Virus record (IMG/VR): IMGVR_UViG_3300006875_002433
Span: 1-38,349 of that record
DNA: 38,349 nt
Direction: 5' to 3' (one strand)
Source of the DNA: a virus
Translations under genes and position numbers: made by a program
Shown: positions 1 to 38,349 of the stretch, one piece after another
Layout of the letters: each line of letters starts with the position of its first letter
Numbering within the stretch: position 1 is the first letter of the stretch
The notes under the pieces: model-generated
What the model saw: the letters and a program-made list of their open reading frames with translations, nothing else
Told to the model about the DNA's origin: nothing
The model's database searches: none

Positions 1-16
1 CATTGTAGTCAATCAT
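1..16 (-). CDS. Start of a gene running off the left edge
   Basis: An ATG at 16 reads Met-Ile-Asp-Tyr-Asn before the window ends. A purine-rich AGAGG sits about five bases upstream, directly after the stop of the neighbouring gene at 25, which fits the tight operon spacing seen elsewhere. Only five codons are visible, so no function can be given. It lies downstream of the truncated Pol III gene on the same strand and is one place where the missing polymerase part could follow, but nothing here shows that. Confidence 0.4.
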
Positions 17-24
17 AAAACCTC

Positions 25-285
25 TTACTTAATCAAAAAATTTTGCACCAAAAAATATACTAATGTGCAAACAAATCCACCACCAATCGCCCCAACAGCT
101 AAGCCTAGCTTGAATTTACTTTGATCCGGAAGCAAAGGTAAATCTTCTTTGTTTCTAATGGCTCGTTCTTTAGCTGTAATCAATTGATTTGACGAAAACA
201 AATAATCTACGCCCTTATCATCCTTATAATGCCAGTAATACTCTTCAGAACTTGTTTGCTTGTCTTTGTTCTCTACTTTTAGCAT
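25..285 (-). CDS. Small phage protein with C-terminal membrane segment
   Basis: This 86-aa protein has a soluble N-terminal part (residues 1-58) with YYWHY near residue 16 and a segment TAKERAIRNKEDL near residue 37. One hydrophobic, glycine-rich segment follows (about 60-85), so it is probably anchored in the inner membrane with its N-terminus inside. The KERAxxNxEDL segment recurs in the 137-aa protein at 3380-3793, and the YYWH start recurs in the 69-aa protein at 35925-36134, so this looks like a small paralogous family. The function is not recognised. It sits 12 bases downstream of the exonuclease gene in the same operon. Confidence 0.7.
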   Translation of the reverse strand: MLKVENKDKQTSSEEYYWHYKDDKGVDYLFSSNQLITAKERAIRNKEDLPLLPDQSKFKLGLAVGAIGGGFVCTLVYFLVQNFLIK

Positions 286-297
286 AAAATTTCCTTT

Positions 298-975
298 CTA
301 AACATAATAGTTACCATCGGCAAAAGCCTTTTCGAATTTCATGTTTTTATAAACAGCCCTACGGGACTTTTGTAGCTTGATAAATATATTAGCTGTATCT
401 TTAACGTCTTGCAATGCGTCGTGAGCATTATCAGTTTGTATTCCCATTCTTTCTCTTAACGAATCCATACTAATGGACTTAATATTTGGATCGCCCTCGG
501 TCCATAACCAAATATCATCCATAACATCAATCTTATAAATTTGATGAAACAAATTTTGACATTCTCTTTTATTGTCCCATGGTCCGTATTGTTTGCATAA
601 ACGATCCACTATTTTCATATCAAACCCAATTATATTAAATCCACACGGTATTGGCGCGAAAAATGATGTTCCTTGCCAATTATATTTTTCAACGAAGCTA
701 ATAAACTTCTTCCATACTGTTTTAAGTTCTGGCGCTTCAGCTAATTTGTCGCGGGTTTTCCTGGTGATTTTTAAAGCTTCTTCCTGTAGTGGTTCAAGAC
801 CTAAATCTATAGCCTTTTGGTCATCAAGTATTGGTCTAATTTCGCTATTAAATGTTCCCTTTAATTTAAAGTTTCTACCATCTAAAGCTATAGCCGCAAG
901 TTGTGTTGGTTGAGTTTTATATGGATTGCGAGATCCAGTTTCAAAGTCGAAGCAAATTATATCAAGACGAGCCAT
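298..975 (-). CDS. DEDDh-type 3'-5' exonuclease (DnaQ/epsilon-like)
   Basis: The 225-aa protein carries the three exonuclease motifs in order: DFETGS near residue 10 (Exo I, Asp and Glu metal ligands), NIIGFDMKIVDRL near residue 114 (Exo II Asp), and NAHDALQDVKDTANI near residue 182 (Exo III, His and Asp of HDAxxD). This is the DEDDh family, which removes 3' nucleotides and usually proofreads for Pol III. Its place in the same operon as the Pol III alpha fragment at 1667-3322 supports a proofreading role. The length fits a single exonuclease domain with no obvious extra domain. The start ATG is two bases from the stop of the HNH gene. RNase T-like activity cannot be excluded. Confidence 0.9.
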   Translation of the reverse strand: MARLDIICFDFETGSRNPYKTQPTQLAAIALDGRNFKLKGTFNSEIRPILDDQKAIDLGLEPLQEEALKITRKTRDKLAEAPELKTVWKKFISFVEKYNWQGTSFFAPIPCGFNIIGFDMKIVDRLCKQYGPWDNKRECQNLFHQIYKIDVMDDIWLWTEGDPNIKSISMDSLRERMGIQTDNAHDALQDVKDTANIFIKLQKSRRAVYKNMKFEKAFADGNYYV

Positions 976-977
976 GG

Positions 978-1583
978 TTAATTCCTTTGTGAGTGAGAAA
1001 AAGTCTTCATTATTGTTTGTTCTTTATTTTTAAAAGTAATTGCTTCACAAAAATCGAGAAATTCTTGTTCTTCCATATTACCTTTCATTACATTAACACG
1101 TTTGTGTACCCATTGTACATTTCCTTCAATATAGCCTAATGAACTATTAATTCTATCTAATGACGCCGTATAATCACCGTTGATATGCTCTATATTATTG
1201 CGTGAAAAAAATATTTCAACACCAGAATAAGCGCATTTTCTATCTTGTTGAATAAAAAGATTCCAAAGATATTCATAACTTACAGAGAATTCTAGTTTTC
1301 TTCTTTTTGCCGCATTTTTTACCGCCGTAAGATATGCTCCCTGCATTTCTTCATGCCCAGTCCACCTTGGGTTTTTAGCGCCGCTTAAATAGCAATCTTT
1401 TGACCTAAATTCTAATCCACGATTTTTTAGAATTTTTTGAATTTTTTTAGGGTAACTTCCAACTTCTGCTGCGATAGTTTTTATTTTCATCCCACTTTTA
1501 TACTTTTCTATAATTTGATTCTCGTTTAAATCGTGATTATAATTTTTATTTGGTAAAAATCTACCAGTTTGTTTGTCTCTCAT
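978..1583 (-). CDS. Free-standing HNH homing endonuclease
   Basis: This 201-aa protein has an N-terminal helix-turn-helix-like region (about residues 22-57, with KIKTIAAEVGSYPKKIQKIL) and a C-terminal HNH nuclease. The nuclease shows CAYSGVEI, then NIEHINGDYTASLDRINS, then GYIEGNVQWVHKRVN, the usual order in phage HNH enzymes that cleave DNA and spread by copying themselves into homologous sites. It lies between the truncated Pol III alpha gene and the exonuclease gene. An 80-base AT-rich gap precedes it, containing a TATAAT hexamer at 1621-1626 but no good -35 box. I see no group I intron core around it, so it appears free-standing. It may have caused or accompanied the polymerase truncation. 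Confidence 0.88.
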   Translation of the reverse strand: MRDKQTGRFLPNKNYNHDLNENQIIEKYKSGMKIKTIAAEVGSYPKKIQKILKNRGLEFRSKDCYLSGAKNPRWTGHEEMQGAYLTAVKNAAKRRKLEFSVSYEYLWNLFIQQDRKCAYSGVEIFFSRNNIEHINGDYTASLDRINSSLGYIEGNVQWVHKRVNVMKGNMEEQEFLDFCEAITFKNKEQTIMKTFSHSQRN

Positions 1584-1666
1584 GTTTATTTCCTTTTATA
1601 TAAGTAACCAGTTTCAAGATATTATACACAAAAATATTTTAAAAATGGTTATTTATCGCTAATTTA

Positions 1667-3322
1667 TTAATTTATTCTCCCAATTATTCCTTTGTTAATT
1701 TTTTCTATGTACATTAATTTATCTAGTAGAGTTAGTCCCAAGATATCTAATTTAACATGTCCAAGCGCTTCTAGATCTTCCATTTCTAATCCGGCTATTT
1801 TTTCATCTCCGTTCTTTTGATTTACCATGGGGCAAACTTTATTTAGATTGTTAGCAGATATAACAATTCCAGCAGCGTGTTTACCCTGAGTTTTGAATGT
1901 CCCCTCTATTGCTATAGCCTCTTTAAAATATTCCGCATAATCACCATCTAGTTCGCCGCTATCATTTATAAAGCAAAAATCCCTTAGTTCATCTGGCTTA
2001 TTTATAAGTGACCAGCGTATAATAGACCTATCTTCATCGTCCATTTCCTGTAATTGGTCAGATATTGCCGCCTCATCAGGTATGTTCTTGGTTATTTCAT
2101 TCATCTCGCTAAATCCACAAGCCTCTCGAACTCGTAGAACTTCCTTTATAGCACTTCTACCCTGAAGTCTGCCGAATGTCAACATCTGGCTAACATTTTC
2201 ATTTCCATATTTTGTTTTTAAGTATGCAATTACTTCATCCCGTTTATTAGCGGGAACGTCAACGTCAATATCAGGTAGAGATATATGATCCTCAGTATTT
2301 CTACCGGCATTATAAAATCGACTAAACAATAAATCAAACTCGATTGGATCTATTTTTGTTATTCCAATTAAGTATGAAATCAAACAACCACCGGCTGATC
2401 CACGCCCAGGTCCAGCCAGCCATCCATTTTCTGTTACATATTTAATGATGTCCTGTACAATTAGAAAATAACCAAAAAGATTGGCATTCTTTATAACTTC
2501 AAATTCCTCAAGGAATCTATTTAAATAAACTTGCTTTCTCTCTTCGGAAGATACCTTAGTTGATGATATTAAGAATTTTCTCCATCCTTGCCTACAGATT
2601 TCTTTTAGATACTCTTCTTCTGATTCGCCGTTTGGCGTTGGAAACTTTGGTAGCATGGGTTTGTTGAGAATATCATAAGTCTCACACTTATTATAGATAT
2701 CCTCAAATAGATTTACGCTTTCGGGGTCTTGCAGTAAAAATTCAGCTATCTCAGAATTATCTTTCAAGAAAAAGTCTGAGGATTCAAAAAATTCTTGATG
2801 TTGAACGTTTTTACCAGCTCGTATAGCGTCATATACTTTACGCATTGTTGTTTTCATGCCAGAACATAGTATTATTCTATGTAGGTCAGCGTCTTCTCTA
2901 TCTACATAATATGTATTAAAGAATAGCTCTGATTTTAAATAGAAATCATCACCAGTTACCGGAGATGAAGCCGGATTAATACCTACGCAAATGAGATTTT
3001 TTCTGGAGCATACAAAATTTAATAGCTTTACATCTATGTTTTTGTCTGCATCTAGAGATGAGACTAGCTCAATAAGGTCTAGCCAGCCCTGTTTATTTTT
3101 AGCAAATAATGTGAATCCATCAAAAGAGCATCCTATTATTGGCTTGATTTGATTCTCAATGCAAGCTTTATAAAAAGCTACCGCGCCAGATAGGGACTTG
3201 TAGTCAGCAATACCACAAGCTATGTATCTATTTTTAGAACATTTTTCAGTTAGTTCTTTGGGCTTAGAAAAGCCAACCCCAAGACTATAATGCGTGTAAT
3301 TACACAGTGGAAACCACTTCAT
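1667..3322 (-). CDS. dnaE: DNA polymerase III alpha, N-terminal part ending in the palm
   Basis: The 551-aa product matches the first half of bacterial Pol III alpha. It has a PHP-like N-terminus with altered metal-ligand positions (NYTHYS at 8-13; IKPIIG at 59-64), then the palm with GPGRGSAGG (304-312), the catalytic PDIDVD (350-355, Asp351 and Asp353) and the third catalytic Asp in HVKLDILGL (Asp526). The protein stops 25 residues later at GIIGRIN. Full-length alpha is over 1000 residues, so the fingers, beta-clamp-binding and OB regions are missing. No other piece is in the window. The HNH gene lies next downstream. Either the gene is split with its second half elsewhere or it is broken. 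The promoter at 3356-3383 fits this start. Confidence 0.88.
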   Translation of the reverse strand: MKWFPLCNYTHYSLGVGFSKPKELTEKCSKNRYIACGIADYKSLSGAVAFYKACIENQIKPIIGCSFDGFTLFAKNKQGWLDLIELVSSLDADKNIDVKLLNFVCSRKNLICVGINPASSPVTGDDFYLKSELFFNTYYVDREDADLHRIILCSGMKTTMRKVYDAIRAGKNVQHQEFFESSDFFLKDNSEIAEFLLQDPESVNLFEDIYNKCETYDILNKPMLPKFPTPNGESEEEYLKEICRQGWRKFLISSTKVSSEERKQVYLNRFLEEFEVIKNANLFGYFLIVQDIIKYVTENGWLAGPGRGSAGGCLISYLIGITKIDPIEFDLLFSRFYNAGRNTEDHISLPDIDVDVPANKRDEVIAYLKTKYGNENVSQMLTFGRLQGRSAIKEVLRVREACGFSEMNEITKNIPDEAAISDQLQEMDDEDRSIIRWSLINKPDELRDFCFINDSGELDGDYAEYFKEAIAIEGTFKTQGKHAAGIVISANNLNKVCPMVNQKNGDEKIAGLEMEDLEALGHVKLDILGLTLLDKLMYIEKINKGIIGRIN

Positions 3323-13787: not shown

Positions 13788-14166
13788 AATTAAAAACTAT
13801 CAAATTTATATTATTTAGTTCACACCAGCTTTCTTTTACTGAGTCTCTTCTTTTTTGATCTAAAAATCCAGCTTTAGTTTTATGGAAAAATTGACAATAT
13901 TCATAATGTTGTCTTCCATGAACTTCTATACCTAGATTAAATGTTGGAACGAGAAAGTCAAGGAATAGGACGGATTTTTTACTGGGGCAGGTGGAACCTG
14001 GAAGTTTAACCTCTTCTAAAATCAAATATCCACAAAAGACATCCTTTAATAAATCCCTTGCCATTATGTGAAATGAAGATCTTTTTTTTCTAGTGTCATT
14101 ATTTTTAATTACATATTTTTTTGAATCAATAATATATACTTTATTATTTAATCCCTTTACTTTCAT
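13741..14166 (-). CDS. PD-(D/E)XK-type endonuclease-like protein
   Basis: The 141-aa protein shows LFLDFLVPTFNLGIEVHGRQ near residue 68, where the Asp and the Glu of EVHGRQH match a PD-(D/E)XK nuclease core of the VSR/DUF559 kind. QKRRDSVKESWCELNNINLI and FNYADD follow. Enzymes of this shape cut DNA, and in phages they serve repair or recombination. It lies directly after recA with an ATGA overlap and before the 163-aa protein, so a recombination role is likely. The family assignment rests on motif pattern only. Confidence 0.65.
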   Translation of the reverse strand: MKVKGLNNKVYIIDSKKYVIKNNDTRKKRSSFHIMARDLLKDVFCGYLILEEVKLPGSTCPSKKSVLFLDFLVPTFNLGIEVHGRQHYEYCQFFHKTKAGFLDQKRRDSVKESWCELNNINLIVFNYADDIQIWRKQLECI

Positions 14167-16313
14167 AGTATCTCTCTGATTTGATTATAAATATAATCTT
14201 TCAAATCTTCATTTTCGGTCAGGAAATCTGTAACTTTTTGTATGCCCTGAAATCTAAAAAACTTTTGAACGGCCTCATCATTATTCAGGTCTATATCATT
14301 TTTAATTAAAATGTTTTTAATGGCTGGATCATCTTTGTTGTCTATCGCAGTAGATATTTCGTACCACGCTCCGCTTTTCTTTATCATACTAAATTGACTA
14401 GCTAATTGAGCTATTTCTTGGGCTTCATCTATACCAACGCCATATCTAATCCATGACTCGGCTGTTGTCATGGGCTTTCCACCTGCGGCAGATGTCTTTA
14501 TTATCCAATTGGCAATTTGTCCAACGTGTGGGCCAGTAGACTTTTCATCTTCATTTACAGACGCCCCAGAAGCTAGCCATTTACCTCTATGTGTAATTAC
14601 CATATTGGTTCCAGCTTGATATTGCATCATATTTCCACAGTCAGCAATTTTTTGTGGCGCGAATCTTGATCCGCTTGTGTTAGCTATATTGTGGGTGATA
14701 AATATTAGAATAGCTTTATTTCTAGCTACATCACCACTTATTCTTTTAAAGAACATTGACAGTAGTCTTGGTAATGAATTTCTAACACCAGTTCTGATCT
14801 CACCGTCTAATTCTTCTTTGGGAACCATATTAGAAGCTGAATCAATTATAGCAACCAAGTCTGGGCTGCTTTTAACATAAATCTCAAGGGCATTCAAATA
14901 CGTTTCAGCGGAAACTAGTGGGCATTCATCGGTTGATTGTACTATTTTTATTTTTGACGGATCTAGTCCCTTGATACCAATAAAATTTTCTTTTGTTATT
15001 CTGCCTTCAGTATTGAAATAAATAACATTCTTGCCTAGAGCTTGTGCTTTTGCGGCAAAATATAAAGCAGTGGTAGTATTATGAGTAACATTAAAATTAT
15101 CAGTTAAATAAAGATGATCTGGATGATCAATAAAAATACATTGAGTTTCTTCTTTTCTGACAAGTTCAACTTTTACTATAGTTTTAAATAGTTCTGGTTT
15201 TATTCGTTTTGTTAAAAACTTTTTACGATTAATTTTAAATAATTGATTAATATCATCTCCAGAGATATACAATCTAAAAGATTTAAACTCTTTTCCGTTG
15301 CATTTTGTCATTCTTTCTTTTATTTTAACCATATAACCAAGTGATCGTAATAATTCTGAAACATGAATACTTAAAGCATAAGACGCAGTGCTATATTCTG
15401 CTGATTTACCATTGTCATTATAACCATCAGTATCCATTAAGCCACGAACTAATTCAAATCTATCATTTATAGATGAATAAAGATAATCTTGTGGAATAAA
15501 TTTTGAATGTGATTTTTTACCCATAAGATTTAATGTTCTTAATTTATTAGTTAAATTATTTATATTTTTTCCATATCCAACTATAGAATAGTCATATTTA
15601 GATTTATGATGAATTTCCAGATCATTATCTTTAGCGTAATTTTTAAAAGCTTCTAAAATTTCATCATCTGCTGTAGTAATAATAGGAGTTCCTTGTGATA
15701 GTCCTCCATCTCCGATTAAACATCCTAGTATATATGGATCTATTTCAAGATTTTTACAGTCAAAATAAACCGGTTTACAAATAGGAATCTTCCATTTTGG
15801 TCTATCGCTATAGAATAAACCCTCTTCTATTATTTGTCTTAAAGGTAAGACTACCCACTCGTCATTTCTTCCATGATAATTTTTACAAACTTTCCATAAA
15901 TGATCTATACCACATTCTGCAAATGTGCCATCGTTAAAAGATATTCTATAAACATCTTTTATACCTTGAGGGTAAATTCCATTTATTCTTGCGGTTTCTC
16001 CGCCATTTGGAGTACAAACTATATCTCCAATTTTTAATGAGCCCATTTTTCTTGGCCCATCTGGAGTATAGACGATTGCTGATAAAGGTTGATCTTTTCC
16101 AGTCTTTGGATCGCCAGTCATTACTACGCAACTTCCCTCTCTTAGCCCACCACCAAGGGCTATATCTAAAGATGGAGATATTCCTATCTTTTTTAATTCT
16201 TGAAGATCTTCTAAGACCTTCTCTCCACTCTCTACGATATTTCCAAATTTAGAATTAATTTGATTGCTAATAACATCATCTTCAAATACTTTACTCTTCA
16301 GTTTCTTCGCCAT
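14163..16313 (-). CDS. recA: RecA/UvsX recombinase interrupted by an intein
   Basis: The 716-aa reading frame encodes a RecA-family recombinase of about 377 aa with a 339-aa intein inside. The recombinase N-terminus reads ISPSLDIALGGGL, and the Walker A P-loop is split: GDPKTGK (residues 67-73) is followed by the intein and then TTTALYFAAK (from 413). Walker B is LVAIIDSA, and LLSMFFKRISGDVARNKAIL and FITHN follow in the usual order. The protein promotes strand exchange in phage recombination-dependent replication. ATP binding cannot occur until the intein leaves, because the insertion breaks the GK-T motif. It is followed by the nuclease-like gene with an ATGA overlap. Confidence 0.93.
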   Translation of the reverse strand: MAKKLKSKVFEDDVISNQINSKFGNIVESGEKVLEDLQELKKIGISPSLDIALGGGLREGSCVVMTGDPKTGKDQPLSAIVYTPDGPRKMGSLKIGDIVCTPNGGETARINGIYPQGIKDVYRISFNDGTFAECGIDHLWKVCKNYHGRNDEWVVLPLRQIIEEGLFYSDRPKWKIPICKPVYFDCKNLEIDPYILGCLIGDGGLSQGTPIITTADDEILEAFKNYAKDNDLEIHHKSKYDYSIVGYGKNINNLTNKLRTLNLMGKKSHSKFIPQDYLYSSINDRFELVRGLMDTDGYNDNGKSAEYSTASYALSIHVSELLRSLGYMVKIKERMTKCNGKEFKSFRLYISGDDINQLFKINRKKFLTKRIKPELFKTIVKVELVRKEETQCIFIDHPDHLYLTDNFNVTHNTTTALYFAAKAQALGKNVIYFNTEGRITKENFIGIKGLDPSKIKIVQSTDECPLVSAETYLNALEIYVKSSPDLVAIIDSASNMVPKEELDGEIRTGVRNSLPRLLSMFFKRISGDVARNKAILIFITHNIANTSGSRFAPQKIADCGNMMQYQAGTNMVITHRGKWLASGASVNEDEKSTGPHVGQIANWIIKTSAAGGKPMTTAESWIRYGVGIDEAQEIAQLASQFSMIKKSGAWYEISTAIDNKDDPAIKNILIKNDIDLNNDEAVQKFFRFQGIQKVTDFLTENEDLKDYIYNQIREIL
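15078..16094 (-). mobile_element. Class 3-type intein with LAGLIDADG endonuclease in recA
   Basis: The intein occupies residues 74-412 of the recA frame. It starts Asp-Gln-Pro-Leu (DQPLSAIVYTPDG), so it lacks the usual Cys or Ser at position 1. It has the class 3 signature: Trp140 at the end of block B (GIDHLW), Cys392 in block F (QCIFIDHPDH) and Thr410 in block G (NFNVTHN), followed by extein Thr413. Class 3 inteins use the block F Cys as first nucleophile. Two LAGLIDADG motifs are present, ILGCLIGDGG (about 195-204) and LVRGLMDTDG (about 288-297), so an active homing endonuclease is likely. Confidence 0.88.
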
Positions 16314-34814: not shown

Positions 34815-35089
34815 ATGCCAGTTTGGGCGATAGGGTACTGGCAAACCCCAGACAGCTTACGCTGCCAATGCGAGAACTTCGTCTGCACTTACAATTTAAT
34901 CGAGTTTTTAAGTGGCCTCTCGATCAACCACTACATGCAGTTACTACTTACGCAAGCAATCGAAACTTTTCAGGCCCGTCAGGAATATACTTGGTTAAGT
35001 ATACTTTTGGTGGACCTGCCGATCATTGCAAATCGGGTCTTGCTCTGTTTCAATAATAACATCTACATGTTTATCTGGCAATGCCAGAG
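34815..35089 (-). ncRNA. ssrA: Circularly permuted two-piece tmRNA
   Basis: The gene has the acceptor piece first (about 35089-35008) and the coding piece second (34977 to about 34815), with a 30-base spacer (34978-35007). The acceptor piece ends CAGGTCC-A-CCA and pairs with GGGCCTG at the start of the coding piece, seven pairs including G3-U70, the alanine identity element. A T arm, CCGAT/ATCGG with an 8-base loop, precedes the acceptor. After GGGCCTG comes AAAAGTTTCGATTG, like the tmRNA GATTCGAC region. Pseudoknot PK1 (AGTGG/CCACT with ATCGAG/CTCGAT) precedes the tag. The tag stop sits in a GGCAGC-GTAA-GCTGTC hairpin (P5). P2 can form from TTGCT and AGCAA. It rescues stalled ribosomes with SmpB, which is not in the window. 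Confidence 0.9.
34857..34886 (-). other. tmRNA tag reading frame (ADEVLALAA)
   Basis: Within the tmRNA coding piece, GCA-GAC-GAA-GTT-CTC-GCA-TTG-GCA-GCG-TAA encodes ADEVLALAA and stop, with TAAGT before the resume codon (compare TAGTC in E. coli). The ending LAA is the ClpXP-type degradation signal. With the alanine from charged tmRNA, the tag would be A-ADEVLALAA. The stop codon lies in the P5 hairpin loop. Confidence 0.9.
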
Positions 35090-37578: not shown

Positions 37579-38349
37579 TCAAATTAAAATATCTTTTATA
37601 ACTTTACCGTTATCCACTATCTCAACGGGCCTTTCTCCAGGCGCCATTAACTCTTTATCCGCCACAATACCTAATAGGTGGTACATTGTATACGCAAAAT
37701 CTTCCGGTGATACTGGGTTATTTTCCGGCTCTGATGCGGTAGAATCCGTAGCCCCATAGATTAATCCACGTTTCACACCGCCACCGGCCAGTAGCGTGCT
37801 AAACGCTTTGGGCCAATGATCACGCCCTGCGTCTGCGTTGATTTTGGGCGTTCTCCCAAATTCACTACTTACCATGATTAGAGTCGTGTCTAATAAGCCG
37901 CGCTCATCTAGATCGCTAATAAGGGCCGTTAAAGCCTTATCTAGAGGTGGAGCTTGAGTTTTCATCGCACCATTGATCCCTTGGTGCATATCCCAGCCGC
38001 CATAAGTTAAAGTTACCATTCTAACGCCAGCCTCAACTAATCTCCTAGCCATTAACATTCTTTGACCGGCTTGATTTTTACCATATCGTTCTTTAATTTT
38101 TTCATCTTCTGCTTTTAAATTAAATGCTTCCCTAGCTTTTGGCGAAGTAATTAAACTAAAAGCCTGATCATAAAAACTATTCATAGCTTTCATTTTATCA
38201 GCATGGGGATTTTTATAAAAGAAATCTTGATTGACTATAGCTAGGGCGGACTTCCTTCTTTCAAATCTATCTAGATCAATACCTTCTGGCAGAGACAGGT
38301 CTTGCACCTGGAAATTCTCATTTGCAGGGTCTGAACCAAGACTGAACGG
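37579..38349 (-). CDS. DUF1501-type protein, 5' end outside the window
   Basis: The open frame runs to the right edge (256 residues visible). It begins PFSLGSDPANENFQ then VQDLSLPEGIDLDRFERRK and contains AGVRMVTLTYGGWDMHQGIN, LDERGLLDTTLIMVSSEFGR and a TPKINADAGRDHWPKAFSTL region, ending in VEIVDNGKVIKDILI. This matches the C-terminal part of DUF1501 proteins, which are abundant in Planctomycetota and related to alkaline-phosphatase-like or sulfatase folds. The N-terminal part, usually with a twin-arginine signal, is missing. It is nine bases from a phage gene, on the same strand. Confidence 0.87.
   Translation of the reverse strand, partial: PFSLGSDPANENFQVQDLSLPEGIDLDRFERRKSALAIVNQDFFYKNPHADKMKAMNSFYDQAFSLITSPKAREAFNLKAEDEKIKERYGKNQAGQRMLMARRLVEAGVRMVTLTYGGWDMHQGINGAMKTQAPPLDKALTALISDLDERGLLDTTLIMVSSEFGRTPKINADAGRDHWPKAFSTLLAGGGVKRGLIYGATDSTASEPENNPVSPEDFAYTMYHLLGIVADKELMAPGERPVEIVDNGKVIKDILI

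What the first reader, a model, noticed from the sequence alone, without database searches (positions are those of the whole stretch)
978..3322. Pol III alpha stops after the third catalytic Asp, next to an HNH endonuclease
The 551-aa product contains all three catalytic aspartates (Asp351, Asp353, Asp526) but lacks the fingers and all later domains. The HNH gene follows directly. Mobile HNH genes are known to break or split phage genes. If the C-terminal half exists elsewhere, the polymerase may work from two polypeptides. The break point is not a known split-intein junction.
Basis: partly seen in the sequence, partly recalled or inferred. Interest (0 to 1): 0.75.

Follow-up and report, generated by a model that had tools for sequence, protein, structure and literature searches.

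The report
Phage replicase split at palm/fingers
A widespread, uncultured group of large phages encodes its only detectable DNA-copying enzyme as two separate proteins with a proofreading-nuclease gene between them; the mobile HNH gene beside the break in this window is a late passenger and did not cause it.

Summary
The 551-aa DnaE-N (3322-1667, minus) holds PHP, thumb and palm with D351, D353 and D526, and no fingers. It is neither broken by the HNH gene nor mis-assembled. The window's first 16 bases (minus strand) read ATGATTGACTACAATG, which gives MIDYN, the conserved start of a separate DnaE-C gene cut off by the contig edge. In 158 non-identical related viral loci the order is always DnaE-N, DEDDh exonuclease, DnaE-C, and no ORF spans both halves. 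The split proteins form one branch of the tree (SH-aLRT 99). All three genes are under strong purifying selection, and catalytic residues are kept. AlphaFold models of the halves match E. coli alpha residues 4-578 and 588-1073, so the break falls in the palm-fingers linker and loses about ten residues. No intein or intron lies at the junction. Fifteen large contigs carry no family A or B polymerase. The HNH gene sits in the gap in only 9 of 158 loci. Most likely a non-covalent two-polypeptide Pol III alpha with its own epsilon-like exonuclease; no biochemistry exists. Other split polymerases, including a different split minimal Pol III alpha in jumbo phages, are known, so this is a new variant.

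The parts
1667..3322 (-). dnaE-N: PHP, thumb and palm of DNA polymerase III alpha, 551 aa, catalytic D351/D353/D526; ends one helix after the palm
   Evidence: AlphaFold pLDDT 91, VIA Z 28.9 to E. coli alpha residues 4-578
978..1583 (-). free-standing HNH/endonuclease VII-like gene with an N-terminal helix-turn-helix; optional, patchy insert between dnaE-N and the exonuclease gene
298..975 (-). DEDDh 3'-5' exonuclease (DnaQ/epsilon-like), present between the two dnaE halves in every complete relative
25..285 (-). small protein with one apparent membrane segment (read from the sequence); the same gene lies just before dnaE-C in L005 and L006
17..26 (-). Shine-Dalgarno-like AAGAGG (26-21) and spacer before the dnaE-C start codon
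   Evidence: sequence read directly
1..16 (-). start of dnaE-C (ATG ATT GAC TAC AAT G = MIDYN...), the fingers half, cut off by the contig end
   Evidence: matches MIDYKDEK, MIDYTDEK, MIDFNDKK and MIDLNDEK starts of the relatives

Best explanation
The gene pair encodes a two-polypeptide family C DNA polymerase. DnaE-N supplies PHP, thumb and palm with all three catalytic aspartates; DnaE-C supplies fingers, the region that follows, and the OB fold. They assemble without a covalent link, together with the epsilon-like exonuclease encoded between them, to form the phage's replicase core. The break lies in the palm-fingers linker, so both halves keep whole domains. It happened, as far as the sampled relatives show, once in the ancestor of a broad group of large phages and has been kept since. 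The HNH gene is a later mobile insertion into the intergenic gap. Shown: gene order, conservation, selection, complementary folds, absence of another family A or B polymerase in the contigs tested. Inferred: physical assembly, activity, and the exonuclease's partnership.
For: Window bases 16-1 (minus) encode the conserved DnaE-C start. 158 non-identical complete loci all have N..EXO..C on one strand, no fused ORF. Split rows form one side of a branch, SH-aLRT 99, one change. Median dN/dS N 0.043, EXO 0.023, C 0.033; N-C distance correlation 0.93. Catalytic Asp 156/156; exonuclease DEDDh residues 158-159/159. N model matches E. coli alpha 4-578, C model 588-1073; sequence alignment places the same junction. 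One palm domain in each of 15 contigs and one fingers domain in each of the 11 scanned for it, on separate ORFs; no family B or A polymerase in 15.
Against: No biochemical data. The complex could not be modelled here. All split loci are metagenomic and most contigs may be incomplete. Searches started from split queries and kept the best 80 hits each, so close unsplit relatives could have been missed. The window itself shows only five residues of DnaE-C.
Confidence: 0.85

Rival explanations
1. The HNH homing endonuclease gene (or its insertion) broke an intact dnaE here, leaving a fragment.
For: The HNH gene lies directly after the truncated frame. Homing endonucleases often sit beside essential phage genes (PMC10448857). 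Split inteins with a separate gene between their halves do break dnaE further in L011 and L013.
Against: The same break occurs without this HNH family in 149 of 158 loci; the exonuclease gene is also always between the halves. The halves are under strong purifying selection.
Confidence: 0.03
2. The halves are joined after all, by a split intein or by RNA trans-splicing.
For: Cyanobacterial DnaE is split by an intein (own knowledge; mentioned in PMC3919608). L011 has split inteins at two other dnaE sites. Phage G dnaE is interrupted by an intein and by what look like introns.
Against: The N tail after the third Asp is 15-43 aa (median 21), too short for an intein N half; in the window's close relatives C starts about 15 aa before the fingers motif. 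No intein family matches P0001 or P0006. No intron family matches in the window. Each half has its own start and stop, and some gaps span up to 6 kb.
Confidence: 0.04
3. DnaE-N and DnaE-C have separate functions (for example a PHP/nucleotidyltransferase repair enzyme and a DNA-binding protein) and the phage uses the host replicase.
For: No activity has been shown; some phages use host Pol III (own knowledge).
Against: All catalytic residues and the fingers residues tested are kept; N and C co-occur in all complete loci, their distances correlate (0.93), and the window places them near primase, DnaB and RecA-like genes.
Confidence: 0.06
4. Assembly or sequencing error at 1583-1667.
For: Metagenomic contig of 38 kb.
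Against: Independent contigs from many samples end dnaE-N within a few residues of the same point, and L005 and L006 have the same HNH family at the same place.
Confidence: 0.01

Closest known systems
Bacterial DNA polymerase III alpha (DnaE), e.g. E. coli alpha
   Same: Domain order PHP-palm/thumb-fingers-OB; catalytic residues; separate DEDDh exonuclease (epsilon); fold match Z 28.9 and 21.8
   Different: Two polypeptides; no linker residues around 579-587; DnaE-C ends at the OB fold and lacks the region after about residue 1073
Split minimal Pol III alpha of group 2.2 jumbo phages (Iyer et al. 2021, PMC7824862)
   Same: A phage Pol III alpha catalytic module split into two standalone proteins, proposed to reconstitute the enzyme
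   Different: There: minimal module without the other Pol III domains, distantly located genes, alongside a family B replicase. Here: PHP and OB present, a compact N-EXO-C cluster, no family B or A polymerase found
Cyanobacterial split DnaE with split intein
   Same: DnaE made as two polypeptides
   Different: No intein here, so no ligation; from memory, the break point also differs
Fractured genes / split-intein phage polymerases (Dassa et al. 2009, seen only as a citation; MIJ3 PolB, PMC6892783)
   Same: Phage polymerase gene in pieces with an HNH gene in between; L011 has split inteins with a separate gene between them at two other dnaE sites
   Different: The palm-fingers break has no intein halves, and its HNH gene is optional
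Cellulophaga phage phi13:1 gp038/gp039
   Same: Cultured phage with dnaE in two adjacent genes, both annotated as Pol III alpha
   Different: Broken just before the catalytic DxD, not at palm-fingers; no exonuclease gene between

Membership tests
Family C DNA polymerase (DnaE type) | Pol-beta-like palm with DxD plus third Asp; PF07733 | tested here: met
   PF07733 E 3e-67; D351, D353, D526 invariant 156/156; Z 28.9 to 2hnh
Family C DNA polymerase (DnaE type) | Fingers domain PF17657 | tested here: met
   Met by the separate DnaE-C of relatives; in the window only its first five residues are present
Family C DNA polymerase (DnaE type) | Single polypeptide (usual, not required for the family) | tested here: not met
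   No ORF spans both halves in any split-clade locus
Family C DNA polymerase (DnaE type) | Polymerase activity | not testable with these tools
   needs purified proteins
Split-intein DnaE | Intein N half after the N part and intein C half before the C part | tested here: not met
   N tail 15-43 aa; no intein model in P0001 or P0006
Split minimal Pol III alpha of group 2.2 jumbo phages | Lacks the other Pol III domains and accompanies a family B polymerase | tested here: not met
   PHP and OB present; no PF00136 in 15 contigs
Replicase proofreading exonuclease (DnaQ/epsilon-like) | DEDDh active site | tested here: met
   D, E, D, H, D conserved in 158-159 of 159; PF00929; PHROG DNA polymerase exonuclease subunit
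Replicase proofreading exonuclease (DnaQ/epsilon-like) | Binds the polymerase and proofreads | not testable with these tools
   inferred from gene order only
Free-standing HNH homing endonuclease | HNH/endonuclease VII-type nuclease with patchy presence at a fixed intergenic site | tested here: met
   PHROG 3322/1035; 9 of 158 loci at the same gap
Free-standing HNH homing endonuclease | Cleaves the allele without the insertion and drives homing | not testable with these tools
   needs a cleavage assay

The most novel reading that the evidence does not exclude
A whole group of phages replicates with a family C polymerase whose palm and fingers sit on different polypeptides held only by non-covalent contacts, with the exonuclease encoded between them acting as an obligate third subunit that bridges the halves, so that the replicase core is an N-EXO-C heterotrimer.
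Probability: 0.3. Interest if true: 0.75.

Novelty: new variant of a known kind. Interest (0 to 1): 0.6.

Why it matters
Separating palm and fingers, the two parts that close around the incoming nucleotide, without covalent repair tests how tightly a replicative polymerase must be built. The phages are large and diverse, and no family A or B polymerase was found in the contigs tested, so the split enzyme is probably their replicase. It gives a natural two-part Pol III alpha for biochemistry. It also shows that single-contig or single-gene annotation would miscall these polymerases as truncated, and that HNH genes next to a break need not be its cause.

Tried and rejected
HNH as breaker: rejected by the HNH-less majority. 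Intron or ribozyme: Rfam finds only tRNAs and a permuted tmRNA in the window. Intein at the junction: none. Frameshift-made N-EXO-C polyprotein: rejected because gaps vary from overlaps to 6 kb. Phage G as an isolate precedent for the same break: rejected, because its third Asp lies in gp339 with the fingers and gp329 carries an intein, so the gene looks intron- and intein-interrupted. Bacteroides phage DAC19, which has a related exonuclease: its fingers domain lies in a 1276-aa open frame, so not split there. A search for unsplit relatives in IMG/VR with L096 found none. The genome-contig scan gave one close relative, on a contig binned as SAR202 bacterium (L097), which is weak host evidence. 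Literature searches found no description of this palm-fingers split; the library lacks most subscription papers. Joining N and C into one chain for structure prediction was not tried because the tool does not allow altered sequences.

Full report
WHAT IS THERE. The window is a 38,349-bp IMG/VR virus record. On the minus strand, dnaE-N (3322-1667, 551 aa) is followed by an HNH-type gene (1583-978), a DEDD exonuclease gene (975-298), a small gene with one apparent membrane segment (285-25) and the contig end. DnaE-N has a PHP domain and the DNA_pol3_alpha domain with Asp351, Asp353 and Asp526, and nothing of the fingers. The first-stage observation is therefore right.

THE MISSING HALF STARTS IN THE WINDOW. 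Read on the minus strand, bases 26-21 are AAGAGG and bases 16-1 are ATGATTGACTACAATG, which translates as MIDYN. In relatives the separate fingers gene starts MIDYKDEK, MIDYTDEK, MIDFNDKK or MIDLNDEK, and in L005 and L006 it directly follows the same membrane-protein gene. The contig ends 16 bases into dnaE-C. This rests on five codons plus synteny; the rest of dnaE-C is not in the window.

THE SPLIT IS GENERAL AND OLD. Searches of IMG/VR with both halves and with diverged members gave about 320 loci. After removal of loci with identical protein ends, 158 contained all three genes; all have the order N, exonuclease, C on one strand, and no ORF matches both the N and C profiles (110 of 110 in the earlier set). 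A deeper set (L012-like, contigs up to 230 kb) has the same arrangement. In a tree with 11 unsplit DnaE proteins from phage records, the 53 split representatives are one side of a branch (SH-aLRT 99) and need a single change.

THE BREAK POINT. Sequence alignment to E. coli alpha runs to residue 574 for the N part and starts at 589 for the C part. AlphaFold models (pLDDT 91 and 88) align to residues 4-578 of 2hnh (Z 28.9, 503 residues, rmsd 3.4) and 588-1073 of 5fku (Z 21.8, 447 residues, rmsd 7.9, over several domains). The break thus lies in the palm-fingers linker and costs about ten residues. Both halves keep whole domains.

BOTH HALVES ARE FUNCTIONAL GENES. Median dN/dS is 0.043 (N), 0.023 (exonuclease) and 0.033 (C) over up to 25 pairs; pairwise distances of N and C correlate at 0.93 (shared ancestry alone would also give a high value). 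The three palm aspartates are invariant in 156 of 156; the exonuclease DEDDh residues in 158-159 of 159; the fingers residues that could be tabulated are invariant or nearly so (whose last rows were not computed because one motif string was absent from the reference). Each of 15 contigs of 122-229 kb has exactly one palm domain; the 11 contigs scanned for the fingers domain (110-173 kb) have exactly one, on a separate ORF. None of the 15 has a Pfam family B or family A polymerase. The contigs may be incomplete, so this absence is strong but not final.

NO SPLICING AT THE JUNCTION. The N tail after the third aspartate is 15-43 aa (median 21), too short for an intein half. P0001 and P0006 match no intein model. 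The window has no intron family match. Gene gaps range from overlaps of 4-20 bases, which suggest translational coupling, to several kilobases.

THE HNH GENE. It matches phage endonuclease families (PHROG 3322, 1035) and carries a weak N-terminal helix-turn-helix match. A gene of this family sits between dnaE-N and the exonuclease gene in 9 of 158 loci, scattered over the group; a different small HNH family sits between the exonuclease gene and dnaE-C in 13. It is a mobile passenger near an essential gene, as is common in phages (PMC10448857), not the cause of the split.

COMPARISON WITH WHAT IS KNOWN. Iyer et al. 2021 (PMC7824862) describe a split minimal Pol III alpha in group 2.2 jumbo phages, encoded by distant genes and accompanying a family B polymerase. 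The system here differs in the respects tested. Cellulophaga phage phi13:1 splits dnaE before the DxD motif. Phage G dnaE is interrupted by an intein and apparently by introns. Cyanobacterial DnaE and phage MIJ3 PolB use split inteins. Unsplit DnaE is the rule in the other named phages examined. I found no paper describing this palm-fingers split, within an incomplete library.

MECHANISM. Most likely N and C fold separately, dock as palm on fingers, and work with the exonuclease as the replicase core. The domain anatomy, conservation and selection are shown; the docking, activity and the role of the exonuclease are inferred.

Noticed in passing
window 34857-35070 (-): Permuted (two-piece) tmRNA, Rfam RF04321 at 68 bits against a threshold of 47; matches over the family threshold also in 5 of 15 large related phage contigs, so these phages probably carry their own permuted tmRNA.
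   Followed up: partly
window 37579-38349 (-): DUF1501 protein at the right contig edge; 8 of 15 related phage contigs carry full-length DUF1501 genes, up to four copies, so it is probably a phage gene rather than host sequence.
   Followed up: partly
L011 748-7826: In this relative dnaE-N and dnaE-C are each broken again by split inteins with a separate gene between the intein halves, so the polymerase is encoded in four pieces: two trans-splicing sites plus the intein-free palm-fingers break.
   Followed up: partly
L064 9062-11416, L010 5090-7246, L013 12410-15846: Inserts within dnaE-C after about residue 48 (intein-domain matches in L064 and L013, an HNH match in L064; L010 not scanned); L013 also has a split intein further on in the fingers half.
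   Followed up: partly
window 14163-16313 (-): RecA-like protein of 716 aa with a LAGLIDADG endonuclease domain before the RecA match, i.e. an intein-like or fused insertion.
   Followed up: no
L012 12739-13055, L190 8745-8860: In the deeper clade DnaE-C has an extra N-terminal lead of about 30 residues with a CGC motif before the fingers; unknown role, possibly part of the interface.
   Followed up: no
L098 7944-11848 (Pelotomaculum propionicicum contig) and L327: dnaE in two ORFs broken just before the catalytic DxD, the same place as in Cellulophaga phage phi13:1 (L327); suggests a second recurrent break point.
   Followed up: no
L097: A relative with the split locus lies on a 152-kb contig binned in a SAR202 genome (VFHP01000007.1), a weak hint at the host or a binning artefact.
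   Followed up: no
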